From Muricea muricata (Eukaryota > Cnidaria > Anthozoa > Malacalcyonacea > Plexauridae), in assembly GCA_963855995.1 (NCBI GenBank), contig OY979731.1:1-64000 (forward strand): 64,000 bases of DNA. The letters are read 5' to 3'. The notes under the pieces are model-generated. The model did no database searches. It was not told where the DNA came from and worked only from the letters and a program-made list of their open reading frames with translations. Position 1 is the first letter of the stretch. Each line of letters begins with the position of its first letter. The position numbers and the translations under genes are program-made. Below, piece by piece: positions 174 through 63,725 of this stretch.

Positions 174-245
174 TGTGGTGTGTCGTAGTGGTTAAGGTGA
201 GTGTCTTCCATGCCGCAGTTTGGGGTTCGAATCCCGGCGACGTCT
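174..245 (+). pseudogene. tRNA-derived module, divergent left-edge copy
   Basis: A box TGTCGTAGTGG (181-191) and B box GGTTCGAATCC (224-234). The D-arm region reads GGTTAAGG, a common tRNA D-loop form, where most copies have GGTCAAGG. Acceptor and anticodon stems are still not well paired. This may be closer to the ancestral tRNA-like sequence than the bulk copies. Confidence 0.8.
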
Positions 246-297
246 ATTTTATACTTTTGAGTCAAAGTTGTTTTTTTTTGAGTTTTTTTCTTTATTA

Positions 298-339
298 TTA
301 GGGTCAGGGTTAGTGTTAGGGTTATTTTTGGGGTTGATT
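298..339 (+). repeat. Telomere-like hexamer tract, best preserved form
   Basis: The first hexamers are TTAGGG, TCAGGG and TTAGTG, then TTAGGG, TTATTT, TTGGGG and TTGATT, all in one phase. Two of the seven are exact TTAGGG, against one in most copies. Confidence 0.68.
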
Positions 340-692
340 GACAATAATATTAATGCAAAAAAAATTTTTTTAAGCACCTCTAGACTCTTAAATTCAGGTA
401 TTGCAAAAACCGTGATGCCATGGTACGTCACGTTTCCGCGGTGTTAATGCACCACAATCTTTGCAAGCAGCAGAGACTAACGTACATATATACAAACGGT
501 GATTCTATACTCTCGATGATCGGACCCGAATCTGGAATTCCAGGGTTTTAGCGCTCACGGCCTGGGGGCCGCTTCTACCCTCTCCTAACAGTTCGAATTC
601 GGGCCAGGGATGGTGGATATTAGGCGAAGCCAGTCAATTGGATGTTAATGTTGGCGACAACAACGTCCAATTCTGTCAGGGCGCCAAATGTC

Positions 693-860
693 CAAAGCCA
701 TCTTTTATAACAATACTTGGTCCCTTTCACCATGGTTATGCTCTCTTTTTTAAGCGTCAATGTTAAATACCGTTTTCAAAGCCATCTTTTATAGCAATAC
801 TTTGTCCATTTCACCATGGTTATGCTCTCTTTTTTAAGCGACAATGTTAAATACCGTTTT
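693..860 (+). repeat. 84-bp internal tandem duplication
   Basis: Two 84-bp copies (693-776 and 777-860) both start with CAAAGCCATC and are followed by CAAACACGG. The shared CAAA at both breakpoints suggests the duplication arose by slippage or microhomology-mediated repair. Confidence 0.88.
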
Positions 861-881
861 CAAACACGGTTTGTTGATTGT

Positions 882-953
882 TGTGGTGTGTCGTAGTGGT
901 TAAGGTGAGTGTCTTCCATGCCGCAGTTTGGGGTTCGAATCCCGGCGACGTCT
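882..953 (+). pseudogene. tRNA-derived module, divergent left-edge copy
   Basis: Same variant as the preceding module (GTGGTGTG before the A box, GGTTAAGGTGAGTG after it) with a perfect B box. It is followed by the usual T-runs and by a telomere-like tract starting TTAGGG. Confidence 0.8.
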
Positions 954-1005
954 ATTTTATACTTTTGAGTCAAAGTTGTTTTTTTTTGAGTTTTTTTCTT
1001 TATTA

Positions 1006-1047
1006 TTAGGGTCAGGGTTAGTGTTAGGGTTATTTTTGGGGTTGATT
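1006..1047 (+). repeat. Telomere-like hexamer tract, best preserved form
   Basis: Same sequence state as the 298-339 copy, preceded by TTTATTA rather than the bulk TTTATAA. Confidence 0.68.
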
Positions 1048-1401
1048 GACAATAATATTAATGCAAAAAAAAATTTTTTCAAGCACCTCTAGACTCTTAA
1101 ATTCAGGTATTGCAAAAACCGTGACGCCATGGTACGTCACGTTTCCGCGGTGTTAATGCACCACAATCTTTGCAAGCAGCAGAGGCTAACGTACATATAT
1201 ACAAACGGTGATTCTATACTATCGATGGTCGGATCCGAATCTGGAATCCCAGGGTTTTAGCGCTCACGGCCTGAAGGCCGCTTCTACCCTCCCCTAACAG
1301 TTCCAATTCGGGCCAGGGATGGTGGATATTAGGCAAAGGCAGCCAATTGGATGTTAATGTTGGCGACAACAACGTCCAACTCTGTCAGGGCGCCAAATGT
1401 C

Positions 1402-1569
1402 CAAAGCCATCTTTTATAACAATACTTGGTCCCTTTCACCATGGTTATGCTCTCTTTTTTAAGCGACAATGTTAAATACCGTTTTCAAAGCCATCTTTTA
1501 TAGCAATACTTGGTCCATTTCACCATGGTTATGGTCTCTTTTTTAAGCGACAATGTTAAATACCGTTTT
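1402..1569 (+). repeat. 84-bp internal tandem duplication
   Basis: Two 84-bp copies (1402-1485 and 1486-1569) have the same CAAA breakpoints as the neighbouring long-form units. A private GGTCTC replaces GCTCTC in the second copy near 1530. Confidence 0.88.
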
Positions 1570-1590
1570 CAAACACGGTTTGTTGATTGT

Positions 1591-1662
1591 TGTGCTGTGT
1601 CGCAGTGGTCAAGGTGAATGTCTTCCATGCCGCAGTTTGGGGTTCGAATCCCGGCGACGTCT
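1591..1662 (+). pseudogene. tRNA-derived module, intermediate copy
   Basis: The A box is TGTCGCAGTGG and the D-loop GGTCAAGGTGAATG, intermediate between the left-edge variant and the bulk. The B box is perfect. The downstream long T run is 12, among the longest in the window. Confidence 0.8.
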
Positions 1663-1716
1663 ATTTTACACTTTTGATTCAAAGTTGTTTTTTTTTTTGA
1701 GTTTTTTTCTTTATAA

Positions 1717-1758
1717 TTAGGGTCAGGGTTAGTGTTAGGGTTATTTTTGGGGTTGATT
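1717..1758 (+). repeat. Telomere-like hexamer tract, transitional form
   Basis: This copy keeps TTAGGG in the first hexamer but has the bulk-type TATAA upstream. It is intermediate between the left edge and the TTAAGG-bearing majority to the right. Confidence 0.65.
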
Positions 1759-1975
1759 GACAATAATATTAATGCAAAAAAAATTTTTTTAAGCACCTCT
1801 AGACTCTTAAATTAAGGTATTGCAAAAACCGTGACGCCATGGTACGTCACGTTTCCGCGGTGTTAATGCACCACAATCTTTGCAAGCAGCAGAGGCTAAC
1901 GTACATATATACAAACGGTGAGTCTATACTATTGATGGTCGAATTCGAATCTGGAATCCCAGGGTTTTAGCACTC

Positions 1976-4900
1976 ATGGTCTGGGGGCCGCTTCTACCCT
2001 CCCCTAACAGTTCGAATTCGGGCCAGGGATGGTGGACACAAGGCGAAGGCAGTCAATTGGATGTTAATGTTGGCGACAACAACGTCCAATTCCGCCAGGG
2101 CGCCAAATGTCCAAAGCCATCTTTTATAACAATACTTGGTCCATTTCACCATGGTTATGCTCTCTTTTTTAAGCGACAATGTTAAATACCGTTTTCAAAC
2201 ACGGTTTGTTCATTGTTGTGCTGTGTCGTAGTGGTCGAGGTGAATGTCTTCCATGCCGCAGTTTGGGGTTCGAATCCCGGCGATGTCTATTTTATACTTT
2301 TGAGTCAAAGTTTTTTTTTTTGAGTTTTTTTCTTTATAATTAAGGTCAGGGTTAGTGTTAGGGTTATTTTTGGGGTTGATTGACAATAATATTAATGCAA
2401 AAAAATTTTTTTAAGCACCTCTAGACTCTTAAATTCAGGTATTACAAAAAGCGTGACGCGATGGTACGTCACGTTTCCGCGGTGTTAATGCACCACAATC
2501 TTTGCAAGCAGCAGAGGCTAACGTACATATATACAAACGGTGATTCTATACTATCGATGGTCGAATTCGAATCTGGAATTCCAGGGTTTTAGCACTTATG
2601 GTCTGGGGGCCGCTTCCACCCTCCCCTAACAGTTCGAATTCGGGCCAGGGATGGTGGATATTAGGCGAAGGCAGTCAATTGGATGTTAATGTTGGCGACA
2701 ACAACGTCCAATTCCGCCAGGGCGCCAAATGTCCAAAGCCATCTTTTATAACAATACTCTGTCCATTTCACCATGGTTATGCTCTCTTTTTTAAGCGACA
2801 ATGTTAAATACCGTTTTTAAACACGGTTTGTTGATTGTTGTGCTGTGTCGTACTGGTCAAGGTAAATGTCTTCCATACCGCAGTTTGGGGTTCGAATCCC
2901 GGCGACGTCTATTTTATACTTTTGAGTCAAAGTTTTTTTTTTTGAAATTTTTTCTTTATAATTAAGGTCAGGGTTAGTGTTAGGGTTATTTTTGGGGTTG
3001 ATTGACAATAATATTAATGCAAAAAAATTTTTTTAAGCACCTCTAGACTCTTAAATTCAGGTATTGCAAAAAGTGTGACGCGATGGTACGTCACGTTTCC
3101 GCGGTGTTAATGCACCACAATCTTTGCAAGCAGCAGAGGCTAACGTACATATATACAAACGGTGATTCTATACTATCGATGGTCGAATTCGAATCTGGAA
3201 TTCCAGGGTTTTAGCACTTATGGTCTGGGGGCCGCTTCTACCCTCCCCTAACAGCTCGAATTCGGGCCAGGGATGGTGGATATTAGGCGAAGGCAGTCAA
3301 TTGGATGTTAATGTTGGCGACAACAACGTCCAATTCCGCCAGGGCGCCAAATGTCCAAAGCCATCTTTTATAACAATACTCTGTCCATTTCACCATGGTT
3401 ATGCTCTCTTTTTTAAGCGACAATGTTAAATACCGTTTTCAAACACGGTTTGTTGATTGTTGTGCTGTGTCGTAGTGGTCGAGGTGAATGTCTTCCATGC
3501 CGCAGTTTGGGGTTCGAATCCCGGCGACGTCTATTTTATACTTTTGAGTCAAAGTTGTTTTTTTTGAGTTTTTTTCTTTATAATTAAGGTCAGGGTTAGT
3601 GTTAGGGTTATTTTTGGGGTTGATTGACAATAATATTAATGCAAAAAAATTTTTTTAAGCACCTCTAGACTCTTAAATTCAGGTATTGCAAAAAGCGTGA
3701 CGCGATGGTACGTCACGTTTCCGCGGTGTTAATGCACCACAATCTTTGCAAGCAGCAGAGGCTAACGTACATATATACAAACGGTGATTCTATACTATCG
3801 ATGGTCGAATTCGAATCTGGAATTCCAGGGTTTTAGCACTCATGGTCTGGGGGCCGCTTCTACCCTCCCCTAACAGTTCGAATTCGGGCCAGGGATGGTG
3901 GACACAAGGCGAAGGCAGTCAATTGGATGTTAATGTTGGCGACAACAACGTCCAATTCCGCCAGGGCGCCAAATGTCCAAAGCCATCTTTTATAACAATA
4001 CTTGGTCCATTTCACCATGGTTATGCTCTCTTTTTTAAGCGACAATGTTAAATACCGTTTTCAAACACGGTTTGGTGATTGTTGTGCTGTGTCGTAGTGG
4101 TCAAGGTAAATGTCTTCCATGCCGCAGTTTGGGGTTCGAATCCCGGCGATGTCTATTTTATACTTTTGAGTCATAGTTTTTTTTTTTGAGTTTTTTTCTT
4201 TATAATTAAGGTCAGGGTTAGTGTTAGGGTTATTTTTGGGGTTGATTAACAATAATATTAATGCAAAAAAATTTTTTTAAGCACCTCTAGACTCTTAAAT
4301 TCAGGTATTGCAAAAAGCGTGACGCGATGATACGTCACGTTTCCGCGGTGTTAATGCACCACAATCTTTGCAAGCAGCAGAGGCTAACGTACATATATAC
4401 AAACGGTGATTCTATACTATCGATGGTCGAATTCGAATCTGGAATTCCAGGGTTTTAGCACTCATGGTCTGGGGGCCGCTTCTACCCCCCCCTAACAGTT
4501 CGAATTCGGGCCAGGGATGGTGGATACAAGGCGAAGGCAGTCAATTGGATGTTAATGTTGGCGACAACAACGTCCAATTCCGCCAGGGCGCCAAATGTCC
4601 AAAGCCATCTTTTATAACAATACTCTGTCCATTTCACCATGGTTATGCTCTCTTTTTTAAGCGACAATGTTAAATACCGTTTTCAAACACGGTTTGTTGA
4701 TTGTTGTGCTGTGTCGTAGTGGTCAAGGTAAATGTCTTCCATGCCGCAGTTTGGGGTTCGAATCCCGGCGACGTCTATTTTATACTTTTGAGTCAAAGTT
4801 TTTTTTTTTGAGTTTTTTTCTTTATAATTAAGGTCAGGGTTAGTGTTAGGGTTATTTTTGGGGTTGATTGACAATAATATTAATGCAAAAAAATTTTTTT

Positions 4901-5926
4901 AAGCACCTCTAGACTCTTAAATTCAGGTATTGCAAAAAGCGTGACGCGATGGTTTGTCACGTTTCCGCGGTGTTAATGCACCACAATCTTTGCAAGCAGC
5001 AGAGGCTAACGTACATATATACAAACGGTGATTCTATACTATCGATGGTCGAATTCGAATCTGGAATTCCAGGGTTTTAGCACTTATGGTCTGGGGGCCG
5101 CTTCCACCCTCCCCTAACAGTTCGAATTCGGGCCAGGGATGGTGGATATTAGGCGAAGGCAGTCAATTGGATGTTAATGTTGGCGACAACAACGTCCAAT
5201 TCCGCCAGGGCGCCAAATGTCCAAAGCCATCTTTTATAACAATACTCTGTCCATTTCACCATGGTTATGCTCTCTTTTTTAAGCGACAATGTTAAATACC
5301 GTTTTTAAACACGGTTTGTTGATTGTTGTGCTGTGTCGTACTGGTCAAGGTAAATGTCTTCCATACCGCAGTTTGGGGTTCGAATCCCGGCGACGTCTAT
5401 TTTATACTTTTGAGTCAAAGTTTTTTTTTTTGAAATTTTTTCTTTATAATTAAGGTCAGGGTTAGTGTTAGGGTTATTTTTGGGGTTGATTGACAATAAT
5501 ATTAATGCAAAAAAATTTTTTTAAGCACCTCTAGACTCTTAAATTCAGGTATTGCAAAAAGTGTGACGCGATGGTACGTCACGTTTCCGCGGTGTTAATG
5601 CACCACAATCTTTGCAAGCAGCAGAGGCTAACGTACATATATACAAACGGTGATTCTATACTATCGATGGTCGAATTCGAATCTGGAATTCCAGGGTTTT
5701 AGCACCTATAGTCTGGGGGCCGCTTCTACCCTCCCCTAACAGTTCGAATTCGGGCCAGGGATGGTGGACACAAGGCGAAGGCAGTCAATTGGATGTTAAT
5801 GTTGGCGACAACAACGTCCAATTCCGCCAGGGCGCCAAATGTCCAAAGCCATCTTTTATAACAATACTCTGTCCATTTCACCATGGTTATGCTCTCTTTT
5901 TTAAGCGACAATGTTAAATACCGTTT
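1976..5926 (+). repeat. Short-form monomers with interspersed near-identical pairs
   Basis: Regular 622-bp units begin at 1976. The unit at 1976 is closely matched by that at 3842 (1866 bp away). The segment at about 2500-3210 is matched by about 4988-5698 (2488 bp away), sharing the rare TGTCGTACTGG A box, CCATACCGC and TTGAAATTT. These are traces of local three- and four-unit exchanges. The monomer at 5708 has ATA at the usual ATG. No gene is seen. Confidence 0.8.
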
Positions 5927-8408
5927 TCAAACACGGTTTGTTGATTGTTGTGCTGTGTCGTAGTGGTCGAGGTGAATGTCTTCCATGCCGCAGTTTGGGG
6001 TTCGAATCCCGGCGACGTCTATTTTATACTTTTGAGTCAAAGTTTTTTTTTTTGAGTTTTTTTCTTTATAATTAAGGTCAGGGTTAGTGTTAGGGTTATT
6101 TTTGGGGTTGATTGACAATAATATTAATGCAAAAAAAATTTTTTAAGCACCTCTAGACTCTTAAATTCAGGTATTGCAAAAAGCGTGACGCGATGGTACG
6201 TCACGTTTCCGCGGTGTTAATGCACCACAATCTTTGCAAGCAGCAGAGGCTAACGTACATATATACAAACGGTGATTCTATACTATCGATGGTCGAATTC
6301 GAATCTGGAATTCCAGGGTTTTAGCACTCATGGTCTGGGGGCCGCTTCTACCCTCCCCTAACAGTTCGAATTCGGCCCAGGGATGGTGGATACAAGGCGA
6401 AGGCAGTCAATTGGATGTTAATGTTGGCGACAACAACGTCCAATTCCGCCAGGGCGCCAAATGTCCAAAGCCATCTTTTATAGCGATACTTGGTCTATTT
6501 CACCATGGTTATGCTCTCTTTTTAAGCGACAATGTTAAATACCGTTTTCAAACACGGTTTGGTGATTGTTGTGCTGTGTCGTAGTGGTCAAGGTAAATGT
6601 CTTCCATGCCGCAGTTTGGGGTTCGAATCCCGGCGACGTCTATTTTATACTTTTGAGTCATAGTTTTTTTTTTTGAGTTTTTTTCTTTATAATTAAGGTC
6701 AGGGTTAGTGTTAGGGTTATTTTTGGGGTTGATTGACAATAATATTAATGCAAAAAAATTTTTTTAAGCACCTCTAGACTCTTAAATTCAGGTATTGCAA
6801 AAAGCGTGACGCGATGGTACGTCACGTTTCCGCGGTGTTAATGCACCACAATCTTTGCAAGCAGCAGAGGCTAACGTACATATATACAAACGGTGATTCT
6901 ATACTATCGATGGTCGAATTCGAATCTGGAATTCCAGGGTTTTAGCACTTATGGTCTGGGGGCCGCTTCTACCCTCCCCTAACAGTTCGAATTCGGGCCG
7001 GGGATGGTGGATATGAGGCGAAGGCAGTCAATTGGATGTTAATGTTGGCGACAACAACGTCCAATTCCGCCAGGGCGCCAAATGCCCAAAGCCATCTTTT
7101 ATAAATATACTCTGTCCATTTCACCATGGTTATGCTCTCTTTTTTAAGCGACAATGTTAAATACCGTTTTCAAACACGGTTTGTTGATTGTTGTGCTGTG
7201 TCGTAGTGGTCGAGGTGAATGTCTTCCATGCCGCAGTTTGGGGTTCGAATCCCGGCGACGTCTATTTTATACTTTTGAGTCAAAGTTTTTTTTTTTGAGT
7301 TTTTTTCTTTATAATTAAGGTCAGGGTTAGTGTTAGGGTTATTTTTGGGGTTGATTGACAATAATATTAATGCAAAAAAAATTTTTTAAGCACCTCTAGA
7401 CTCTTAAATTCAGGTATTGCAAAAAGCGTGACGCGATGGTACGTCACGTTTCCGCGGTGTTAATGCACCACAATCTTTGCAAGCAGCAGAGGCTAACGTA
7501 CATATATACAAACGGTGATTCTATACTATCGATGGTCGAATTCGAATCTGGAATTCCAGGGTTTTAGCACTCATGGTCTGGGGGCCGCTTCTACCCTCCC
7601 CTAACAGTTCGAATTCGGCCCAGGGATGGTGGATACAAGGCGAAGGCAGTCAATTGGATGTTAATGTTGGCGACAACAACGTCCAATTCCGCCAGGGCGC
7701 CAAATGTCCAAAGCCATCTTTTATAGCGATACTTGGTCTATTTCACCATGGTTATGCTCTCTTTTTAAGCGACAATGTTAAATACCGTTTTCAAACACGG
7801 TTTGGTGATTGTTGTGCTGTGTCGTAGTGGTCAAGGTAAATGTCTTCCATGCCGCAGTTTGGGGTTCGAATCCCGGCGACGTCTATTTTATACTTTTGAG
7901 TCATAGTTTTTTTTTTTGAGTTTTTTTCTTTATAATTAAGGTCAGGGTTAGTGTTAGGGTTATTTTTGGGGTTGATTGACAATAATATTAATGCAAAAAA
8001 ATTTTTTTAAGCACCTCTAGACTCTTAAATTCAGGTATTGCAAAAAGCGTGACGCGATGGTACGTCACGTTTCCGCGGTGTTATTGCACCACAATCTTTG
8101 CAAGCAGCAGAGGCTAACGTACATATATACAAACGGTGATTCTATACTATCGATGGTCGAATTCGAATCTGGAATTCCAGGGTTTTAGCACTTATGGTCT
8201 GGGGGCCGCTTCTACCCTCCCCTAACAGTTCGAATTCGGGCCGGGGATGGTGGATATGAGGCGAAGGCAGTCAATTGGATGTTAATGTTGGCGACAACAA
8301 CGTCCAATTCCGCCAGGGCGCCAAATGCCCAAAGCCATCTTTTATAAATATACTCTGTCCATTTCACCATGGTTATGCTCTCTTTTTTAAGCGACAATGT
8401 TAAATACC
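5927..8408 (+). repeat. Tandem dimer duplication (1243-bp period)
   Basis: About 5927-7165 and 7170-8408 are near-identical two-monomer blocks. They share CGGCCCAGGG, the TATAAATATAC change near 7100 and 8343, CGGGCCGGGG and TGGATATGAGG. A difference seen is TTATTGCACC near 8083 against TTAATGCACC. The copies at 6951 and 8194 contain an in-frame TGA (ATATGAGG) in the recurrent + strand frame. Confidence 0.85.
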
Positions 8409-9055
8409 GTTTTTAAACACGGTTTGTTGATTGTTGTGCTGTGTCGTAGTGGTCAAGGTAAATGTCTTCCATGCCGCAGTTTGGGGTTCGAATCCCGGCG
8501 ACGTCTATTTTATACTTTTGAGTCAAAGTTTTTTTTTTGAGTTTTTTTCTTTATAATTAAGGTCAGGGTTAGTGTTAGGGTTATTTTTGGGGTTGATTGA
8601 CAATAATATTAATGCAAAAAAATTTTTTTAAGCACCTCTAGACTCTTAAATTCAGGTATTGCAAAAAGCGTGACGCGATGGTACGTCACGTTTCCGCGGT
8701 GTTAATGCACCACAATCTTTGCAAGCAGCAGAGGCTAACGTACATATATACAAACAGTGATTCTATACTATCGATGGTCGAATTCGAATCTGGAATTCCA
8801 GGGTTTTAGCACTCATGGTCTGGGGGCCGCTTCCACCCTCCCCTAACAGTTCGAATTCGGGCCAGGGATGGTGGACACAAGGCGAAGGCAGTCAATTGGA
8901 TGTTAATGTTGGCGACAACAACGTCCAATTCCGCCAGGGCGCCAAATGTCCAAAGCCATCTTTTATAACAATACTTGGTCCATTTCACCATGGTTATGCT
9001 CTCTTTTTTAAGCGACAATGTTAAATACCGTTTTCAAACACGGTTTGTTGATTGT

Positions 9056-9127
9056 TGTGCTGTGTCGTAGTGGTCGAGGTGAATGTCTTCCATGCCGCAG
9101 TTTCGGGTTCGAATCCCGGCGACGTCT
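9056..9127 (+). pseudogene. tRNA-derived module with repaired T stem
   Basis: A single G-to-C change at 9104 gives CGGG before TTCGAAT. This restores the 50-64 pair of the T stem, which is mismatched in the other copies examined. It may be chance, a back mutation or a relic of the ancestral tRNA state. The rest of the cloverleaf remains degraded. Confidence 0.75.
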
Positions 9128-11437
9128 ATTTTATACTTTTGAGTCAAAGTTTTTTTTTTTGAGTTTTTTTCTTTATAATTAAGGTCAGGGTTAGTGTTAG
9201 GGTTATTTTTGGGGTTGATTGACAATAATATTAATGCAAAAAAATTTTTTTAAGCACCTCTAGACTCTTAAATTCAGGTATTGCAAAAAGCGTGACGCGA
9301 TGGTACGTCACGTTTCCGCGGTGTTAATGCACCACAATCTTTGCAAGCAGCAGAGGCTAACGTACATATATACAAACGGTGATTCTATACTATCGATGGT
9401 CGAATTCGAATCTGGAATTCCAGGGTTTTAGCACTTATGGTCTGGGGGCCGCTTCTACCCTCCCCTAACAGTTCGAATTCGGGCCAGGGATGGTGGATAC
9501 AAGGCGAAGGCAGTCAATTGGATGTTAATGTTGGCGACAACAACGTCCAATCCCGCCAGGGCGCCAAATGTCCAAAGCCATCTTTTATAGCAATACTTGG
9601 TCAATTTTACCATGGTTATGCTCTCTTTTTAAGCGACAATGTTAAATACCGTTTTCAAACACGGTTTGGTGATTGTTGTGCTGTGTCGTAGTGGTCAAGG
9701 TAAATGTCTTCCATGCCGCAGTTTGGGGTTCGAATCCCGGCGACGTCTATTTTATACTTTTGAGTCAAAGTTTTTTTTTTTTGAGTTTTTTTCTTTATAA
9801 TTAAGGTCAGGGTTAGTGTTAGGGTTATTTTTGGGGTTGATTGACAATAATATTAATGCAAAAAAATTTTTTTAAGCACCTCTAGACTCTTAAATTCAGG
9901 TATTGCAAAAAGCGTGACGCGATGGTACGTCACGTTTCCGCGGTGTTAATGCACCACAATCTTTGCAAGCAGCAGAGGCTAACGTACATATATACAAACG
10001 GTGATTCTATACTATCGATGGTCGAATTCGAATCTGGAATTCCAGGGTTTTAGCACTCATGGTCTGGGGGCCGCTTCTACCCTCCCCTAACAGTTCGAAT
10101 TCGGGCCAGGGATGTGGATATTAGGCGAAGGCAGTCAATTGGATGTCAATGTTGGCCACAACAACGTCCAATTCCGCCAGGGCGCCAAATGTCCAAAGCC
10201 ATCTTTCATAACAATACTCTGTCCATTTCACCATGAATATGCTCTCTTTTTTAAGCGACAATGTTAAATACCGTTTTCAAACACGGTTTGTTGATTGTTG
10301 TGCTGTGTCGTAGTGGTCAAGGTAAATGTCTTCCATGCCGCAGTTTGGGGTTCGAATCCCGGCGACGTCTATTTTATACTTTTGAGTCAAAGTTTTTTTT
10401 TTTGAGTTTTTTTCTTTATAATTAAGGTCAGGGTTAGTGTTAGGGTTATTTTTGGGGTTGATTGACAATAATATTAATGCAAAAAAATTTTTTTAAGCAC
10501 CTCTAGACTCTTAAATTCAGGTATTGCAAAAAGCGTGACGCGATGGTACGTCACGTTTCCGCGGTGTTAATGCACCACAATCTTTGCAAGCAGCAGAGGC
10601 TAACGTACATATATACAAACGGTGATTCTATACTATCGATGGTCGAATTCGAATCTGGAATTCCAGGGTTTCGGCACTCATGGTCTCGGGGCCGCTTCTA
10701 CCCTCCCCTAACAGTTCGAATTCGGGCCAGGGATGGTGGATATTAGGCGAAGGCCGTCAATTGGATGTTAATGTTGGCGACAACAACGTCCAATTCCGCC
10801 AGGGCGCCAAATGTCCAAAGCCATCTTTTATAACAATACTCTGTCCATTTCACCATGGTTATGCTCTCTTTTTTAAGCGACAATGTTAAATACCGTTTTC
10901 AAACACGGTTTGTTGATTGTTGTGCTGTGTCGTAGTGGTCAAGGTAAATGTCTTCCATGCCGCAGTTTGGGGTTCGAATCCCGGCGACGTCTATTTTATA
11001 CTTTTGAGTCAAAGTTTTTTTTTTTGAGTTTTTTTCTTTATAATTAAGGTCAGGGTTAGTGTTAGGGTTATTTTTGGGGTTGATTGACAATAATATTAAT
11101 GCAAAAAAATTTTTTTAAGCACCTCTAGACTCTTAAATTCAGGTATTGCAAAAAGCGTGACGCGATGGTACATCACGTTTCCGCGGTGTTAATGCACCAC
11201 AATCTTTGCAAGCAGCAGAGGCTAACGTACATATATACAAACGGTGATTCTATACTATCGATGGTCGAATTCGAATCTGGAATTCCAGGGTTTTAGCACT
11301 CATGGTCTGGGGGCTGCTTCTACCCTCCCCTAACAGTTCGAATTCGGGCCAAAGATGGTGGATATTAGGCGAAGGCAGTCAATTGGATGTCAATGTTAAC
11401 GACAACAACGTCCAATTCTGTCAGGGCGCCAAATGTC

Positions 11438-11597
11438 CAAAGCCATCTTTCATAACAATACTTGGTCCATTTCACCATGGTTATGCTCTCTTTTTTAAGC
11501 GACAATACCGTTTTCAAAGCCATTTTTTATAGCAATACTTGGTCAATTTCACCATGGTTATGCTCTCTTTTTAAGCGACAATGTTAAATACCGTTTT
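11438..11597 (+). repeat. Internal tandem duplication in an isolated long-form monomer
   Basis: The first copy (11438-11514) is 77 bp because it has lost the bases between GACAA and ACCG. The second (11515-11597) is 83 bp with the five-T variant. The monomer also has CTGTCAGG, the long-form marker, yet sits among short-form units, so it was probably moved here by unequal exchange or conversion. Confidence 0.85.
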
Positions 11598-13687: not shown

Positions 13688-14149
13688 CCCAAAGATGTCC
13701 AAAGCCATCTTTTATAACAATAATTGGTCCATTTCACCATGGTTATGCTCTCTTTTTTAAGCGACAATGTTAAATACCGTTTTCAAACACGGTTTGTTGA
13801 TTGTTGTGCTGTGTCGTAGTGGTCGAGGTGAATGTCTTCCATGCCGCAGTTTGGGGTTCGAATCCCGGCGACGTCTATTTTATACTTTTGAGTCAAAAGT
13901 GTTTTTTTTTGAGTTTTTTTCTTTATAATTAAGGTCAGGGTTAGTGTTAGGGTTATTTTTGGGGTTGATTGACAATAATATTACTGCAAAAAAAATTTTT
14001 TTAAGCACCTCTAGACTCTTAAATTCAGGTATTGCAAAAAGCGTGACGCGATGGTACGTCACGTTTCCGCGGTGTTAATGCACCACAATCGGTGATTCTA
14101 TACTATCGATGGTCGAATTCGAATCTGGAATTCCAGGGTTTTAGCACTT
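13688..14149 (+). repeat. Truncated monomer with two deletions
   Basis: At about 13688-13695 the sequence jumps from AAGCACC, downstream of the A/T tract, directly to the ATGTCCAAAGCC segment. This removes roughly 300 bp including the CRE-like repeat, the palindromes, the unit start and the quasi-palindrome. A second deletion of 38 bp falls between 14090 and 14091 (CACAATC joined to GGTGATTC). A tRNA-like module and telomere-like tract survive. Start-to-start distance across it is 906 bp (13244 to 14150). Confidence 0.88.
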
Positions 14150-36782: not shown

Positions 36783-36814
36783 TCAAGGTAAATGTCTTCC
36801 ATGCCGCAGTTTGG

Positions 36815-36825: not shown

Positions 36826-36837
36826 CGGCGACGTCTA

Positions 36838-36879: not shown

Positions 36880-36887
36880 CTTTATAA

Positions 36888-36929: not shown

Positions 36930-36946
36930 GACAATAATATTAATGC

Positions 36947-36960
36947 AAAAAAATTTTTTT
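36947..36960. other. A7T7 palindromic A-tract
   Basis: Seven A followed by seven T form a perfect 14-bp palindrome just after the telomere-like tract. With the T-runs 70-100 bp upstream, it gives each monomer a cluster of rigid A/T tracts that could bend DNA or position nucleosomes. Some copies carry A8T7 or shorter T tracts. Function is inferred only. Confidence 0.6.
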
Positions 36961-37000
36961 AAGCACCTCTAGACTCTTAAATTCAGGTATTGCAAAAAGC

Positions 37001-37020
37001 GTGACGCGATGGTACGTCAC
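37001..37020. other. Inverted repeat GTGACG-8 nt-CGTCAC
   Basis: A perfect 6-bp inverted repeat has an 8-nt spacer. Each arm carries a TGACG/CGTCA half-site of the kind bound by CREB/ATF bZIP proteins, though no binding is shown. A common variant changes the spacer to CCATGGTA, for example near 1130, 1840, 17740, 18365, 24580, 25203, 56260 and 63190. A few copies damage the right arm (GTAACG near 16.51, 21.48, 23.35, 28.32, 35.15, 35.78 and 47.57 kb). Confidence 0.6.
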
Positions 37021-37120
37021 GTTTCCGCGGTGTTAATGCACCACAATCTTTGCAAGCAGCAGAGGCTAACGTACATATATACAAACGGTGATTCTATACT
37101 ATCGATGGTCGAATTCGAAT

Positions 37121-37132
37121 CTGGAATTCCAG
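37121..37132. other. Perfect 12-bp palindrome CTGGAATTCCAG
   Basis: A perfect palindrome lies two bases after TCGAATTCGA, itself a 10-bp palindrome (37109-37118). It is present in most copies. Copies ending AATCCCAG (near 1246, 1958, 47056, 56384 and 63310) have lost perfect symmetry. Confidence 0.8.
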
Positions 37133-40100: not shown

Positions 40101-40250
40101 AAAGCGTGACGCGATGGTACGTCACGTTTCCGCGGTGTTAATGCACCACAATCTTTGCAAGCAGCAGAGGCTAACGTACATATATACAAACGGTGATTCT
40201 ATACTATCGATGGTCGAATTCGAATCTGGAATTCCAGGGTTTTAGCACTC

Positions 40251-54300: not shown

Positions 54301-56538
54301 GGTTATTTTTGGGGTTGATTGACAATAATGATAATGCAAAAAAATTTTTTTAAGCACCTCTAGACTCTTAAATTCAGGTATTGCAAAAAGCGTGACGCGA
54401 TGGTACGTCACGTTTCCGCGGTGTTAATGCACCACAATCTTTGCAAGCAGCAGAGGCTAACGTACATATATACAAACGGTGATTCTATACTATCGATGGT
54501 CGAATTCGAATCTGGAATTCCAGGATTTTAGCACTCATTGTCTGGGGGCCGCTTCTACCCTCCCCTAACAGTTCGAATTCGGGCCAGGGATGGTGGATAT
54601 TAGGCGAAGGCAGTCAATTGGATGTTAATGTTGGCGACAACAACGTCCAATTCCGCCAGGGCGCCAAATGTCCAAAGCCATCTTTTATAACAATACTCTG
54701 TCCATTTCACCATGGTTATGCTCTCTTTTTTAAGCGACAATGTTAAATACCGTTTTTAAACACGGTTTGTTGATTGTTGTGCTGTGTCGTAGTGGTCAAG
54801 GTAAATGTCTTCCATGCCGCAGTTTGGGGTTCGAATCCCGGCGACGTCTATTTTATACTTTTGAGTCAAAGTTTTTTTTTTGAGTTTTTTTCTTATAATT
54901 AAGGTCAGGGTTAGTGTTAGGGTTATTTTAGAGGTTGATTGACAATAATATTAATGCAAAAAAATTTTTTTAAGCACCTCTAGACTCTTAAATTCAGGTA
55001 TTGCAAAAAGCGTGACGCGATGGTACGTCACGTTTCCGCGGTGTTAATGCACCACAATCTTTGCAAGCAGCAGAGGCTAACGTACATATATACAAACGGT
55101 GATTCTATACTATCGATGGTCGAATTCGAATCTGGAATTCCAGGGTTTTAGCACTCATGGTCTGGGGGCCGCTTCTACCCTCCCCTAACAGTTCGAATTC
55201 GGGCCAGGGATGGTGGATATTAGGCGAAGGCAGTCAATTGGATGTTAACGTTGGCGACAACAACGTCCAATTCCGCCAGGGCGCCAAATGTCCAAAGCCA
55301 TCTTTTATAACAATACTCTGTCCATTTCACCATGGTTATGCTCTCTTTTTTAAGCGACAATGTTAAATACCGTTTTCAAACACGGTTTGTTGATTGTTGT
55401 GCTGTGTCGTAGTGGTCAAGGTAAATGTCTTCCATGCCGCAGTTTGGGGTTCGAATCCCGGCGACGTCTATTTTATACTTTTGAGTCAAAGTTTTTTTTT
55501 TGAGTTTTTTTCTTTATAATTAAGGTCAGGGTTAATGTTAGGGTTATTTTTGGGGTTGATTGACAATAATATTAATGCAAAAAAATTTTTTTAAGCACCT
55601 CTAGACTCTTAAATTCAGGTATTGCAAAAAGCGTGACGCGATGGTACGTCACGTTTCCGCGGTGTTAATGCACCACAATCTTTGCAAGCAGCAGAGGCTA
55701 ACGTACATATATACAAACGGTGATTCTATACTATCGATGGTCGAATTCGAATCTGGAATTCCAGGGTTCTAGCACTCATGGTCTGGGGGCCGCTTCTACC
55801 CTCCCCCAACAGTCCGAATTCGGGCCAGGGATGGTGGACACAAGGCGAAGGCAGTCAATTGGATGTTAATGTTGGCGACAACAACGTCCAATTTCGCCAG
55901 GGCGCCAAATGTCCAAAGCCATCTTTTATAACAATACTTGGTCCATTTCACCATGGTTATGCTCTCTTTTTTAAGCGACAATGTTAAATACCGTTTTCAA
56001 ACACGGTTTGTTGATTGTTGTGCTGTGTCGTAGTGGTCGAGGTGAATGTCTTCCATGCCGCAGTTTGGGGTTCGAATCCCGGCGACGTCTATTTTATACT
56101 TTTGAGTCAAAGTTGTTTTTTTTTGAGTTTTTTTCTTTATAATTAAGGTGAGGGTTAGTGTTAGGGTTATTTTTGGGGTTGATTGACAATAATATTAATG
56201 CAAAAAAAATTTTTTTAAGCACCTCTAGACTCTTAAATTCTGGTATTGCAAAAAGCGTGACGCCATGGTACGTCACGTTTCCGCGGTGTTAATGCACCAC
56301 AATCTTTGCAAGCAGCAGAGGCTAACGTACATATATACAAACGGTGATTCTATACTATCGATGGTCGAATTCGAATCTGGAATCCCAGGGTTTTAGCACT
56401 CATGGTCTTGGGGCCGCTTCTACCCTCCCCTAACAGCTCGAATTCGGGCCAGGGAATGGTGGATATTAGGCGAAGGCAGTCAATTGGATGTTAATGTTGG
56501 CGACAACAACGTCCAATTCTGTCAGGGCGCCAAATGTC

Positions 56539-56705
56539 CAAAGCCATCTTTTATAACAATACTTGGTCCATTTCACCATGGTTATGCTCTCTTTTTTAAG
56601 CGACAATGTTAAATACCGTTTTCAAAGCCATCTTTTATAGCAATACTTGGTCAATTTCACCATGGTTATGCTCTCTTTTTAAGCGACAATGTTAAATACC
56701 GTTTT
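56539..56705 (+). repeat. Internal tandem duplication in long-form monomer
   Basis: Copies at 56539-56622 (84 bp) and 56623-56705 (83 bp) again start with CAAA. The monomer (56402-57108) also carries CTGTCAGG, a one-base insertion in CAGGGAATGG and a T-rich telomere-like tract (near 56873). It interrupts the trimer pattern around it. Confidence 0.88.
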
Positions 56706-56726
56706 CAAACACGGTTTGGTGATTGT

Positions 56727-56798
56727 TGTGCTGTGTCGTAGTGGTCAAGGTAAATGTCTTCCATGCCGCAGTTTGGGGTTCGATTCCCGGCGACGTCT
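56727..56798 (+). pseudogene. tRNA-derived module with TTCGATTCC B box
   Basis: The T-loop reads TTCGATT, which still fits GGTTCGANTCC, so the Pol III promoter logic is intact. It follows the long-form internal duplication. The same variant recurs 6927 bp downstream. Confidence 0.75.
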
Positions 56799-59700
56799 AT
56801 TTTATACTTTTGAGTCAAAGTTTTTTTTTTTAGTTTTTTTCTTTATAATTAAGGTCAGGGTTAGTGTTAGGGTTTTTTTTTGGGGTTTATTGACAATAAT
56901 ATTAATGCAAAAAAAATTTTTTTAAGCACCTCTAGACTCTTAAATTCAGGTATTGCAAAAAGCGTGACGCGATGGTACGTCACGTTTCCGCGGTGTTAAT
57001 GCACCACAATCTTTGCAAGCAGCAGAGGCTAACGTACATATATACAAACGGTGATTCTATACTATCGATGGTCGAATTCGAATCTGGAATTCCAGGGTTT
57101 TAGCACTTATGGTCTGGGGGCCGCTTCTACCCTCCCCTAACAGTTCGAATTCGGGCCAGGGATGGTGGATACAAGGCGAAGGCAGTCAATTGGATGTTAA
57201 TGTTGGCGACAACAACGCCCAATTCCGCCAGGGCGCCAAATGTCCAAAGCCATCTTTTATAACAATACTTGGTCCATTTCACCATGGTTATGCTCTCTTT
57301 TTTAAGCGACAATGTTAAATACTGTTTTCAAACACGGTTTGTTGATTGTTGTGCTGTGTCGTAGTGGTCGAGGTGAATGTCTTCCATGCCGCAGTTTGGG
57401 GTTCGAATCCCGGCGACGTCTATTTTTTATACTTTTGAGTCAAAGTTTTTTTTTTTGAGTTTTTTTCTTTATAATTAAGGTCAGGGTTAGTGTTAGGGTT
57501 ATTTTTGGGGTTGATTGACAATAATGATAATGCAAAAAAATTTTTTTAAGCACCTCTAGACTCTTAAATTCAGGTATTGCAAAAAGCGTGACGCGATGGT
57601 ACGTCACGTTTCCGCGGTGTTAATGCACCACAATCTTTGCAAGCAGCAGACGCTAACGTACATATATACAAACGGTGATTCTATACTATCGATGGTCGAA
57701 TTCGAATCTGGAATTCCAGGATTTTAGCACTCATTGTCTGGGGGCCGCTTCTACCCTCCCCTAACAGTTCGAATTCGGGCCAGGGATGGTGGATATTAGG
57801 CGAAGGCAGTCAATTGGATGTTAATGTTGGCGACAACAACGTCCAATTCCGCCAGGGCGCCAAATGTCCAAAGCCATCTTTTATAACAATACTCTGTCCA
57901 TTTCACCATGGTTATGCTCTCTTTTTTAAGCGACAATGTTAAATACCGTTTTTAAACACGGTTTGTTGATTGTTGTGCTGTGTCGTAGTGGTCAAGGTAA
58001 ATGTCTTCCATGCCGCAGTTTGGGGTTCGAATCCCGGCGACGTCTATTTTATACTTTTGAGTCAAAGTTTTTTTTTTGAGTTTTTTTCTTTATAATTAAG
58101 GTCAGGGTTAGTGTTAGGGTTATTTTTGGGGTTGATTGACAATAATATTAATGCAAAAAAATTTTTTTAAGCACCTCTAGACTCTTAAATTCAGGTATTG
58201 CAAAAAGCGTGACGCGATGGTACGTCACGTTTCCGCGGTGTTAATGCACCACAATCTTTGCAAGCAGCAGAGGCTAACGTACATATATACAAACGGTGAT
58301 TCTACACTATCGATGGTCGAATTCGAATCTGGAATTCCAGGGTTCTAGCACTTATGGTCTGGGGGCCGCTTCTACCCTCCCCTAACAGTCCGAATTCGGG
58401 CCAGGGATGGTGGACACAAGGCGAAGGCAGTCAATTGGATGTTAATGTTGGCGACAACAACGTCCAATTTCGCCAGGGCGCCAAATGTCCAAAGCCATCT
58501 TTTATAACAATACTTGGTCCATTTCACCATGGTTATGCTCTCTTTTTTAAGCGACAATGTTAAATACCGTTTTCAAACACGGTTTGTTGATTGTTGTGCT
58601 GTGTCGTAGTGGTCAAGGTAAATGTCTTCCATGCCGCAGTTTGGGGTTCGAATCCCGGCGACGTCTATTTTATACTTTTGAGTCAAAGTTTTTTTTTTTG
58701 AGTTTTTTTCTTTATAATTAAGGTCAGGGTTAGTGTTAGGGTTATTTTTGGGGTTGATTGACAATAATATTAATGCAAAAAAATTTTTTTAAGCACCTCT
58801 AGACTCTTAAATTCAGGTATTGCAAAAAGCGTGACGCGATGGTACGTCACGTTTCCGCGGTGTTAATGCACCACAATCTTTGCAAGCAGCAGAGGCTAAC
58901 GTACATATATACAAACGGTGATTCTATACTATCGATGGTCGAATTCGAATCTGGAATTCCAGGGTTCTAGCACTTATGGTCTGGGGGCCGCTTCCACCCT
59001 CCCCTAACAGTTCGAATTCGGGCCAGGGATGGTGGATACAAGGCGAAGGCAGTCAATTGGATGTTAATGTTGGCGACAACAACGCCCAATTCCGCCAGGG
59101 CGCCAAATGTCCAAAGCCATCTTTTATAACAATGTTTGGTCCATTTCACCATGGTTATGCTCTCTTTTTTAAGCGACAATGTTAAATACTGTTTTCAAAC
59201 ACGGTTTGTTGATTGTTGTGCTGTGTCGTAGTGGTCGAGGTGAATGTCTTCCATGCCGCAGTTTGGGGTTCGAATCCCGGCGACGTCTATTTTTTATACT
59301 TTTGAGTCAAAGTTTTTTTTTTGAGTTTTTTTCTTTATAATTAAGGTCAGGGTTAGTGTTAGGGTTATTTTTGGGGTTGATTGACAATAATGATAATGCA
59401 AAAAAATTTTTTTAAGCACCTCTAGACTCTTAAATTCAGGTATTGCAAAAAGCGTGACGCGATGGTACGTCACGTTTCCGCGGTGTTAATGCACCACAAT
59501 CTTTGCAAGCAGCAGAGGCTAACGTACATATATACAAACGGTGATTCTATACTATCGATGGTCGAATTCGAATCTGGAATTCCAGGATTTTAGCACTCAT
59601 TGTCTGGGGGCCGCTTCTACCCTCCCCTAACAGTTCGAATTCGGGCCAGGGATGGTGGATATTAGGCGAAGGCAGTCAATTGGATGTTAATGTTGGCGAC

Positions 59701-62700
59701 AACAACGTCCAATTCCGCCAGGGCGCCAAATGTCCAAAGCCATCTTTTATAACAATACTCTGTCCATTTCACCATGGTTATGCTCTCTTTTTTAAGCGAC
59801 AATGTTAAATACCGTTTTTAAACACGGTTTGTTGATTGTTGTGCTGTGTCGTAGTGGTCAAGGTAAATGTCTTCCATGCCGCAGTTTGGGGTTCGAATCC
59901 CGGCGACGTCTATTTTATACTTTTGAGTCAAAGTTTTTTTTTTGAGTTTTTTTCTTATAATTAAGGTCAGGGTTAGTGTTAGGGTTATTTTAGGGGTTGA
60001 TTGACAATAATATTAATGCAAAAAAATTTTTTTAAGCACCTCTAGACTCTTAAATTCAGGTATTGCAAAAAGCGTGACGCGATGGTACGTCACGTTTCCG
60101 CGGTGTTAATGCACCACAATCTTTGCAAGCAGCAGAGGCTAACGTACATATATACAAACGGTGATTCTACACTATCGATGGTCGAATTCGAATCTGGAAT
60201 TCCAGGGTTCTAGCACTTATGGTCTGGGGGCCGCTTCTACCCTCCCCTAACAGTCCGAATTCGGGCCAGGGATGGTGGACACAAGGCGAAGGCAGTCAAT
60301 TGGATGTTAATGTTGGCGACAACAACGTCCAATTTCGCCAGGGCGCCAAATGTCCAAAGCCATCTTTTATAACAATACTTGGTCCATTTCACCATGGTTA
60401 TGCTCTCTTTTTTAAGCGACAATGTTAAATACCGTTTTCAAACACGGTTTGTTGATTGTTGTGCTGTGTCGTAGTGGTCAAGGTAAATGTCTTCCATGCC
60501 GCAGTTTGGGGTTCGAATCCCGGCGACGTCTATTTTATACTTTTGAGTCAAAGTTTTTTTTTTTGAGTTTTTTTCTTTATAATTAAGGTCAGGGTTAGTG
60601 TTAGGGTTATTTTTGGGGTTGATTGACAATAATATTAATGCAAAAAAATTTTTTTAAGCACCTCTAGACTCTTAAATTCAGGTATTGCAAAAAGCGTGAC
60701 GCGATGGTACGTCACGTTTCCGCGGTGTTAATGCACCACAATCTTTGCAAGCAGCAGAGGCTAACGTACATATATACAAACGGTGATTCTATACTATCGA
60801 TGGTCGAATTCGAATCTGGAATTCCAGGGTTCTAGCACTTATGGTCTGGGGGCCGCTTCTACCCTCCCCTAACAGTTCGAATTCGGGCCAGGGATGGTGG
60901 ATACAAGGCGAAGGCAGTCAATTGGATGTTAATGTTGGCGACAACAACGCCCAATTCCGCCAGGGCGCCAAATGTCCAAAGCCATCTTTTATAACAATGT
61001 TTGGTCCATTTCACCATGGTTATGCTCTCTTTTTTAAGCGACAATGTTAAATACTGTTTTCAAACACGGTTTGTTGATTGTTGTGCTGTGTCGTAGTGGT
61101 CGAGGTGAATGTCTTCCATGCCGCAGTTTGGGGTTCGAATCCCGGCGACGTCTATTTTTTATACTTTTGAGTCAAAGTTTTTTTTTTGAGTTTTTTTCTT
61201 TATAATTAAGGTCAGGGTTAGTGTTAGGGTTATTTTTGGGGTTGATTGACAATAATGATAATGCAAAAAAATTTTTTTAAGCACCTCTAGACTCTTAAAT
61301 TCAGGTATTGCAAAAAGCGTGACGCGATGGTACGTCACGTTTCCGCGGTGTTAATGCACCACAATCTTTGCAAGCAGCAGAGGCTAACGTACATATATAC
61401 AAACGGTGATTCTATACTATCGATGGTCGAATTCGAATCTGGAATTCCAGGATTTTAGCACTCATTGTCTGGGGGCCGCTTCTACCCTCCCCTAACAGTT
61501 CGAATTCGGGCCAGGGATGGTGGATATTAGGCGAAGGCAGTCAATTGGATGTTAATGTTGGCGACAACAACGTCCAATTCCGCCAGGGCGCCAAATGTCC
61601 AAAGCCATCTTTTATAACAATACTCTGTCCATTTCACCATGGTTATGCTCTCTTTTTTAAGCGACAATGTTAAATACCGTTTTTAAACACGGTTTGTTGA
61701 TTGTTGTGCTGTGTCGTAGTGGTCAAGGTAAATGTCTTCCATGCCGCAGTTTGGGGTTCGAATCCCGGCGACGTCTATTTTATACTTTTGAGTCAAAGTT
61801 TTTTTTTTGAGTTTTTTTCTTATAATTAAGGTCAGGGTTAGTGTTAGGGTTATTTTAGAGGTTGATTGACAATAATATTAATGCAAAAAAATTTTTTTAA
61901 GCACCTCTAGACTCTTAAATTCAGGTATTGCAAAAAGCGTGACGCGATGGTACGTCACGTTTCCGCGGTGTTAATGCACCACAATCTTTGCAAGCAGCAG
62001 AGGCTAACGTACATATATACAAACGGTGATTCTATACTATCGATGGTCGAATTCGAATCTGGAATTCCAGGGTTTTAGCACTCATGGTCTGGGGGCCGCT
62101 TCTACCCTCCCCTAACAGTTCGAATTCGGGCCAGGGATGGTGGATATTAGGCGAAGGCAGTCAATTGGATGTTAACGTTGGCGACAACAACGTCCAATTC
62201 CGCCAGGGCGCCAAATGTCCAAAGCCATCTTTTATAACAATACTCTGTCCATTTCACCATGGTTATGCTCTCTTTTTTAAGCGACAATGTTAAATACCGT
62301 TTTCAAACACGGTTTGTTGATTGTTGTGCTGTGTCGTAGTGGTCAAGGTAAATGTCTTCCATGCCGCAGTTTGGGGTTCGAATCCCGGCGACGTCTATTT
62401 TATACTTTTGAGTCAAAGTTTTTTTTTTGAGTTTTTTTCTTTATAATTAAGGTCAGGGTTAATGTTAGGGTTATTTTTGGGGTTGATTGACAATAATATT
62501 AATGCAAAAAAATTTTTTTAAGCACCTCTAGACTCTTAAATTCAGGTATTGCAAAAAGCGTGACGCGATGGTACGTCACGTTTCCGCGGTGTTAATGCAC
62601 CACAATCTTTGCAAGCAGCAGAGGCTAACGTACATATATACAAACGGTGATTCTATACTATCGATGGTCGAATTCGAATCTGGAATTCCAGGGTTCTAGC

Positions 62701-63465
62701 ACTCATGGTCTGGGGGCCGCTTCTACCCTCCCCCAACAGTCCGAATTCGGGCCAGGGATGGTGGACACAAGGCGAAGGCAGTCAATTGGATGTTAATGTT
62801 GGCGACAACAACGTCCAATTTCGCCAGGGCGCCAAATGTCCAAAGCCATCTTTTATAACAATACTTGGTCCATTTCACCATGGTTATGCTCTCTTTTTTA
62901 AGCGACAATGTTAAATACCGTTTTCAAACACGGTTTGTTGATTGTTGTGCTGTGTCGTAGTGGTCGAGGTGAATGTCTTCCATGCCGCAGTTTGGGGTTC
63001 GAATCCCGGCGACGTCTATTTTATACTTTTGAGTCAAAGTTGTTTTTTTTTGAGTTTTTTTCTTTATAATTAAGGTGAGGGTTAGTGTTAGGGTTATTTT
63101 TGGGGTTGATTGACAATAATATTAATGCAAAAAAAATTTTTTTAAGCACCTCTAGACTCTTAAATTCTGGTATTGCAAAAAGCGTGACGCCATGGTACGT
63201 CACGTTTCCGCGGTGTTAATGCACCACAATCTTTGCAAGCAGCAGAGGCTAACGTACATATATACAAACGGTGATTCTATACTATCGATGGTCGAATTCG
63301 AATCTGGAATCCCAGGGTTTTAGCACTCATGGTCTTGGGGCCGCTTCTACCCTCCCCTAACAGCTCGAATTCGGGCCAGGGAATGGTGGATATTAGGCGA
63401 AGGCAGTCAATTGGATGTTAATGTTGGCGACAACAACGTCCAATTCTGTCAGGGCGCCAAATGTC

Positions 63466-63632
63466 CAAAGCCATCTTTTATAACAATACTTGGTCCATTT
63501 CACCATGGTTATGCTCTCTTTTTTAAGCGACAATGTTAAATACCGTTTTCAAAGCCATCTTTTATAGCAATACTTGGTCAATTTCACCATGGTTATGCTC
63601 TCTTTTTAAGCGACAATGTTAAATACCGTTTT
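63466..63632 (+). repeat. Internal tandem duplication, duplicate of the 56.5-kb copy
   Basis: This lies exactly 6927 bp downstream of the copy at 56539 and shares all of its private changes, including the one-base insertion and TTCGATTCC in the B box. It is part of the large segmental duplication that reaches the right window edge. Confidence 0.88.
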
Positions 63633-63653
63633 CAAACACGGTTTGGTGATTGT

Positions 63654-63725
63654 TGTGCTGTGTCGTAGTGGTCAAGGTAAATGTCTTCCATGCCGCAGTT
63701 TGGGGTTCGATTCCCGGCGACGTCT
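63654..63725 (+). pseudogene. tRNA-derived module, last complete copy in window
   Basis: A box at 63661-63671 and a TTCGATT-type B box, a duplicate of the 56727-56798 module. T-runs and a T-rich version of the telomere-like tract follow. Confidence 0.78.

What the first reader, a model, noticed from the sequence alone, without database searches (positions are those of the whole stretch)
174..63725. About 103 same-strand tRNA-derived Pol III promoters in a satellite
Every monomer carries a near-consensus A box, a (nearly always perfect) B box at normal tRNA spacing, and T-run terminators, while the cloverleaf itself is degraded. The array could produce a short (75-115 nt) Pol III RNA, or act as a dense platform for TFIIIC, which is known to bind B boxes without Pol III and to influence chromatin boundaries and genome organisation. 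The motifs are seen directly; activity is inferred.
Basis: partly seen in the sequence, partly recalled or inferred. Interest (0 to 1): 0.75.

Follow-up and report, generated by a model that had tools for sequence, protein, structure and literature searches.

The report
Chromosome-end satellite with tRNA-type promoters
A repeat near chromosome ends of what is probably a soft-coral relative carries tRNA-type start signals, but these signals change about as fast as the rest of the repeat, so they look more like passengers than a maintained function.

Summary
The window lies inside one array of a 622-bp satellite, with 103 copies on the plus strand and none on the minus. All 103 have an A-like box 43 bp before the B box; 101 of 103 B boxes fit GGTTCGANTCC; all have T-runs behind. 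Two corrections: the A box always misses at least one consensus position, and ARAGORN (whole window) and Rfam (10 kb of it) recognise no tRNA.

The satellite is subtelomeric. Probes find 1,370-1,396 copies in the 453-Mb assembly. The array end plus flank recurs exactly at 24 places on 13 contigs, 23 of them measured within 330 kb of a contig end.

In 170 monomer segments from 14 arrays, A plus B boxes change as often as other places of the same geometry (57% as slow or slower). No separate dispersed population appears at up to 3 mismatches.

Best reading: an inherited Pol III promoter carried along in a satellite homogenised between chromosome ends. Transcription is possible and untested. Precedents exist in amphibians and reptiles. 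New member of a known kind.

The parts
1..64000 (+). Whole window: part of one head-to-tail array of the 622-bp satellite; it is cut at base 1 (contig start) and ends 1,715 bp beyond the window, at C16:65,715
174..292 (+). First complete tRNA-like promoter unit (head plus T-runs) of the array; limits are my reading
   Evidence: read; boxes
181..191 (+). A-like box TGTCGTAGTGG, first copy
224..234 (+). B box GGTTCGAATCC, first copy
247..250 (+). First T4 run (terminator-like) behind the B box, first copy
2102..2723 (+). A typical 622-bp monomer, phased as in the consensus
   Evidence: cut positions
693..864 (+). 84-bp module present twice in a long (708-bp) monomer
13375..14009 (+). Irregular stretch: a 320-bp partial copy (B-box probe starts 13,530 and 13,850)
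63661..63671 (+). Last A-like box in the window
   Evidence: spacing 43
63704..63714 (+). Last B box in the window

Best explanation
This is a subtelomeric satellite whose 622-bp monomer contains a tRNA-type (A box, B box, T-run) Pol III promoter unit inherited from an older Pol III element. The array grows and shrinks by unequal exchange. It spreads between chromosome ends as part of larger subtelomeric duplications, together with one constant flank. The boxes stay intact because the whole monomer is kept about 98% alike, not because the boxes are specially protected. Shown: array, motifs, end location, shared flank, equal change rates of A plus B, head and body travelling together. Inferred: descent of the head from a Pol III element, and the exchange mechanism. 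Unknown: whether any copy is transcribed or bound by TFIIIC.
For: Change rates: 152 full monomers from 6 arrays: A 0.91, B 0.45, rest 0.91 parsimony changes per site; 48% of same-geometry placements are as slow or slower. 170 segments of 460 bp from 14 arrays: A 1.09, B 0.45, other 0.89; 57%. In the window alone, 99 monomers: divergence from consensus A 1.38%, B 0.37%, whole 1.44%. The slowest 30-bp block is cons 391-420, outside the head. In one short array 2 of 3 full monomers carry a changed B box and were still copied nearly identically. Head and body counts agree: 1,370 (B-box probe), 1,396 (A-box probe), 1,382 (body probe), reversed controls 0. Homogenisation reaches across chromosomes: mean difference within the window array 2.41%, to C8 2.45%, to C2 2.15 and 2.73%, to C3 3.14%; five monomers near array ends differ more from the other groups (3.3-4.2%). 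Location: 24 exact junctions on 13 contigs; 10 of these 24 were read and all 10 end at consensus position 220, the other nine flanks 95.5-100% identical to that of the window's array over 400 bp. Telomere repeats lie at the right end of C16 and, behind 5,000 N, at the left end of C8.
Against: The B box alone changes at about half the background rate and is more often intact than 77% of 11-mers, weakly in favour of constraint. Preservation of both boxes while the rest of the tRNA likeness decayed suggests the promoter was once under selection, before or during amplification. Gene conversion breaks the tree assumption behind the change counts. Low divergence (about 2-4%) gives little power for 22 sites. 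Not all contig ends could be shown to be telomeric: the C2 start has no telomere repeat, the C1 and C3 starts read N.
Confidence: 0.65

Rival explanations
1. An active Pol III transcription unit is maintained in each monomer and makes a 75-115-nt RNA with a role, for example at chromosome ends.
For: Complete promoter layout in 103 of 103 copies of the window with T-runs; B box intact in 164 of 170 segments of 14 arrays; the last unit has a perfect B box in 10 of 10 arrays read; B box alone changes less than the rest.
Against: A+B together change no more slowly than elsewhere; the A box always lacks a consensus base; no structure in the predicted RNA beyond shuffles. 11-mers of the monomer are intact in a median 92% of segments anyway.
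Confidence: 0.12
2. The arrays act as TFIIIC-binding boundary platforms (like extra-TFIIIC sites) at the edges of subtelomeric blocks, with or without Pol III.
For: Arrays meet one constant flank near contig ends. Five of five neighbouring junction pairs 170-228 kb apart are + then -, i.e. arrays on both sides facing inward. ETC sites with extended B boxes and insulator roles are described (PMC12409998, passages).
Against: Not general: on C2 the - array at 21-46 kb and the + array at 195-232 kb face away from each other, and on C4 the listed copies at both places are -. Over all 24 junctions, 14 point to the contig interior and 10 to its end (my count). The blocks look like copies of each other, so the five pairs are not independent. 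A+B show no constraint.
Confidence: 0.1
3. The Pol III unit mattered for amplification: TFIIIC/Pol III complexes stalled replication forks and favoured unequal exchange, so tRNA-type sequences tend to become satellites in this genome.
For: The same genome holds other tandem tRNA-type arrays: a 346-bp tRNA-Lys satellite on C1 and a unit of about 2,144 bp with Pro, Ile, Arg and Leu tRNAs. Fork pausing and recombination at yeast tRNA genes are reviewed in PMC5368702 (passages).
Against: Large tRNA clusters are known from Nematostella, zebrafish and stickleback (PMC2888827, passages), so co-occurrence may be ordinary; nothing here shows stalling.
Confidence: 0.1
4. The boxes are a chance match in a satellite unrelated to tRNA.
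For: With both boxes masked, the head is no more tRNA-like than shuffles (271 of 1,000); ARAGORN and Rfam find no tRNA.
Against: 9 of 60,000 shuffles give the pair; with only the B box masked 9 of 1,000 shuffles score as well; the head is the best tRNA match of the monomer's windows.
Confidence: 0.03

Closest known systems
OAX / satellite I of Xenopus, PolIII/TAN (Hirt) of the newt Cynops, Rana/polIII (as described in the Background section of PMC10702118)
   Same: Long tandem repeats with a tRNA-like segment; PolIII/TAN is transcribed in vitro according to that paper; for them too no matching dispersed SINE is confirmed there.
   Different: Amphibians; other monomer lengths (about 360 and 250 nt for the newt and frog ones); sequences were not compared here; transcription untested here.
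SINE-derived satellites (sSats) of squamate reptiles, PMC10702118
   Same: Tandem arrays with tRNA-type promoter box(es) in some of them, subtelomeric preference, homogenised between loci.
   Different: Their units are short (67 nt in snakes, 115 nt in one gecko variant, passages) and map to known SINE families; here the unit is 622 bp and no dispersed parent was found at up to 3 mismatches.
Tandem tRNA gene arrays (Entamoeba, PMC2652664 abstract and outline; Nematostella, zebrafish and stickleback clusters, PMC2888827 passages)
   Same: Many copies of tRNA-type promoters close together, in tandem in Entamoeba.
   Different: Those carry tRNA genes; this satellite is not recognised as tRNA. The host genome also has arrays of that kind.
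Extra-TFIIIC (ETC) sites, PMC12409998 passages
   Same: B-box motifs that could bind TFIIIC without Pol III.
   Different: ETC sites are defined by occupancy, which is unknown here; that review counts eight in yeast and over 1,800 in human, and the passages do not describe satellites.

Membership tests
Satellite DNA | Long head-to-tail array of near-identical units | tested here: met
   103 copies, mean consensus identity 98.4% (99 monomers), 94 of 102 spacings 620-624 bp
Satellite DNA | Homogenised within and between arrays | tested here: met
   within the window array 2.41%; between the larger groups (C16, C8, C2, C3) 2.11-3.14%
Subtelomeric satellite | Arrays near chromosome ends on many chromosomes | tested here: met
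Type-2 Pol III promoter | A box, B box, usual spacing, T-run downstream | tested here: met
   103 of 103 with spacing 43 and T-runs; A box with one or two mismatches; spacing 32-93 bp in yeast per PMC12409998
Type-2 Pol III promoter | Transcription by Pol III / TFIIIC binding | not testable with these tools
   no RNA or ChIP data
tRNA gene array | Unit recognised as a tRNA | tested here: not met
   ARAGORN 0 in the whole window; Rfam no tRNA in window 1-10,000, 2,180-2,800 and L022, while the tRNA-Lys array L058 gives many in the same call
SINE-derived satellite | Unit matches a dispersed SINE family of the same genome | tested here: not met
   A-box probe 1,396, B-box probe 1,370, body probe 1,382; the places listed (about 100 of 1,396) all lie within 330 kb of contig ends; more diverged relatives not excluded
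SINE-derived satellite | A terminal unit extends to a SINE end | tested here: inconclusive
   10 of 10 array ends read are truncated at consensus position 220 with one common flank; whether the flank holds a SINE end was not tested
ETC (extra TFIIIC) site | TFIIIC bound, no TFIIIB or Pol III | not testable with these tools
   no occupancy data
Selectively maintained promoter | A and B boxes evolve more slowly than the rest | tested here: not met
   A plus B; B box alone is lower (0.45 against 0.89 changes per site) but 38% of 11-bp windows are as low

The most novel reading that the evidence does not exclude
Dense, same-strand arrays of tRNA-type promoters form TFIIIC-bound borders of 170-230-kb subtelomeric blocks that move between chromosome ends. 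The promoter units face inward on both sides, so the satellite works as a portable boundary for subtelomeric genes rather than as inert filler.
Probability: 0.06. Interest if true: 0.78.

Novelty: new member of a known kind. Interest (0 to 1): 0.4.

Why it matters
If the promoters are live, many chromosome ends of this animal would carry long rows of Pol III start sites, a natural test of whether TFIIIC arrays insulate telomere-near DNA. If they are silent, the case shows how a complete promoter layout can persist across some 1,400 copies without special protection, a useful caution for reading promoter motifs in satellites. It also extends tRNA-type satellites, described for amphibians and reptiles in the paper I read (PMC10702118), to a probable cnidarian.

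Tried and rejected
A strict scan with TRGYNNARNNGG chose a shifted A-box frame (TGGTCAAGGTGA) in many copies; the 43-bp spacing to TGTCGTAGTGG was used instead because it fits the tRNA alignment.

An array-end insertion model (mobile element with fixed ends) was considered because two arrays ended at the same position. The same flank behind all ten ends read points to shared segmental duplication instead, so the fixed end is no evidence of transposition.

A link to a MITE-like element beside the C8 array (terminal inverted repeats, T-run, tRNA-like segment) was tested against the consensus: matches were short, telomere-like or T-rich (best E 0.002), so not accepted.

The tRNA-Lys satellite of C1 was used as a second case: its tRNA part is not slower than its spacer either (1.23 against 0.90 changes per site, 71 phased units from 30 loci).

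Identification of the species failed; Eunicella cavolini (489,969,558 bp in 46 scaffolds) and Gorgonia ventalina (339.18 Mb, abstract shown) do not fit the assembly size.

Rows left out: 3 of 102 phased monomers (lengths 320, 586, 545) from the window consensus; monomers outside 600-720 bp; 13 of 183 segments over 15% different, among them the truncated end units. The and 91 groups count the window and its continuation L009 apart, so 7 and 15 groups are 6 and 14 arrays.
Full report
What was checked. The window is C16:1-64,000 of a 453-Mb, 74-contig assembly. A 4,341-bp piece of contig C74 reads as cox2, atp8 and atp6 on one strand and cox1 with the start of nad1 on the other (gene names are my reading, COX1 also by Pfam). 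From recalled knowledge this is a common octocoral order, so the host is probably an octocoral. mtMutS was not looked for and the species is not identified.

The array. 103 B-box units lie on the plus strand and none on the minus. I phased 102 monomers and aligned the 99 of 600-720 bp into a 622-bp consensus with mean identity 98.4%. The array begins before the contig start and ends at C16:65,715, in the T-run behind the last promoter unit.

The promoter. In all 103 copies an A-like box, TGTCGTAGTGG in 92, stands 43 bp before the B box. 98 of 103 B boxes are exact GGTTCGAATCC and 101 of 103 fit GGTTCGANTCC. Terminator-like T4+ runs follow at 12 bp (96) or 20 bp (7), and a run of 8-12 T within 60 bp in all. 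The A box carries one mismatch to the recalled consensus in 97 copies and two in 6. Such a pair arises in 9 of 60,000 shuffled monomers.

Is it tRNA-derived? ARAGORN finds no tRNA in the window, nor does Rfam in the stretches given to it (1-10,000 and 2,180-2,800), while the same tool finds many in a tRNA-Lys array and none in a C3 stretch of this satellite. Aligned to seven tRNAs taken from this genome, the head is the best 72-bp window of the monomer (32, against 26 for the best of 1,123 windows that start away from it). With the B box masked 9 of 1,000 shuffles score as well; with both boxes masked 271 of 1,000 do. So the boxes, and little else, survive of a tRNA-type ancestor. That suggests selection on the promoter in the past and says nothing about the present.

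Where else it is. Probes for B box (53 bp), A box (35 bp) and body (53 bp) find 1,370, 1,396 and 1,382 copies at up to 3 mismatches, reversed controls 0, about 0.19% of the genome (my arithmetic). Head and body travel together, so there is no sign of a separate dispersed SINE at this distance; the listings showed only about 100 places each. The array end with its flank occurs 24 times, all exact over 36 bp, on C2-C8, C10-C13, C15 and C16. C16 ends in telomere repeats and C8 starts with 5,000 N and then telomere repeats; the C2 start has none and the C1 and C3 starts read N. The last unit before the flank was read in 10 of 24: all end at consensus position 220, all have a perfect B box, 8 have the consensus A box, and the next 400 bp of the other nine are 95.5-100% identical to the flank of the window's array.

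Block layout. Five neighbouring junction pairs, 170-228 kb apart, are + then -: arrays facing inward on both sides. Relative to the contig end, 14 of 24 junctions point inward and 10 outward (my count, taking C15 as a right end).

Does selection hold the boxes? In the window, divergence from consensus is 1.38% for A, 0.37% for B and 1.44% overall; 70% and 38% of 11-bp windows are as low as A and B. On a tree of 152 monomers from 6 arrays, A 0.91, B 0.45, rest 0.91 changes per site, and 48% of same-geometry placements are as slow or slower. With 170 segments of 460 bp from 14 arrays the values are 1.09, 0.45 and 0.89, and 57%. A and B together are ordinary. B alone is lowish: 5 changes against about 9.8 expected, and more often intact than 77% of 11-mers, yet 38% of windows change as little. 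In the short array at C16:11.27 Mb, 2 of 3 full monomers have a changed B box. Gene conversion and low divergence limit the test.

Mechanism. Differences within the window array (2.41%) are close to those to C8 and C2 (2.15-2.73%) and somewhat below those to C3 (3.14%); five monomers near array ends differ more (3.3-4.2% to the other groups). This is the pattern of unequal exchange plus exchange between chromosome ends. Under it the boxes remain intact as passengers. Pol III transcription may still occur; no data here bear on it.

Comparison. PMC10702118 (Background, Discussion and the localisation section read, others as passages) lists tRNA-like tandem repeats in Xenopus (OAX), newt, frog and, doubtfully, a salamander, and describes subtelomeric SINE-derived satellites in reptiles. 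tRNA gene arrays are known in Entamoeba (PMC2652664, abstract and outline) and large clusters in Nematostella and some fish (PMC2888827, passages). Among the capped listings of my searches, in an open-access library only, no title or abstract start described such a satellite in a cnidarian; that is weak evidence of absence. The case is a new member of a known kind.

Noticed in passing
L027-L058, C1:68.228 to at least 68.750 Mb: A second, different satellite: 346-bp unit with a tRNA-Lys(TTT) gene recognised by ARAGORN and Rfam in most units read; 1,131 of 1,135 matches of a 46-bp probe are on the contig's minus strand. Its tRNA part changes no slower than its spacer.
   Followed up: partly
L059, C1:53.088 Mb onward: Tandem array of about 2,144 bp per unit with tRNA-Pro(AGG), tRNA-Ile(TAT), tRNA-Arg(TCG) and, once in the 6 kb read, tRNA-Leu(TAG).
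   Followed up: partly
C1:55.3-58.4 Mb and 68.79-68.91 Mb: Many spaced matches to a tRNA-Ser arm (209 genome-wide at up to 1 mismatch; four pieces read, Ser(AGA) and Ser(GCT) found), so C1:53-69 Mb seems rich in tRNA arrays.
   Followed up: no
whole assembly: GGGTTCGANTCCC occurs 6,774 times against 5 for the reversed pattern, so extended B boxes are strongly over-represented.
   Followed up: partly
L015:8101-8464 and a second copy at L015:598-962 (C8): MITE-like element with 34-bp terminal inverted repeats, T-run and an imperfect tRNA-like A/B segment beside the satellite array; both copies seem to share flanks, so one is a duplicate (the tRNA-like segment and an 8-bp target duplication are my reading).
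   Followed up: partly
L014:1-5376 and 6076-7200 (C16 right arm): T-rich tandem repeats, recurring about every 557 bp in part, next to and between pieces of the satellite.
   Followed up: no
L009:5725-5844 (C16:69,725-69,844): A possible exon of a leucine carboxyl methyltransferase gene (Pfam LCM, E 7e-4, 20 bits, below the 22.3 cut-off) about 4 kb beyond the array end.
   Followed up: no
L019, C1:38.415 Mb: A second COX1 match with one stop codon, probably a nuclear copy of the mitochondrial gene.
   Followed up: no
C4:84-826 and C16:1: C4 (minus strand) and C16 (plus strand) have copies of this satellite at or within the first bases of the contig, suggesting assembly breaks in it.
   Followed up: no
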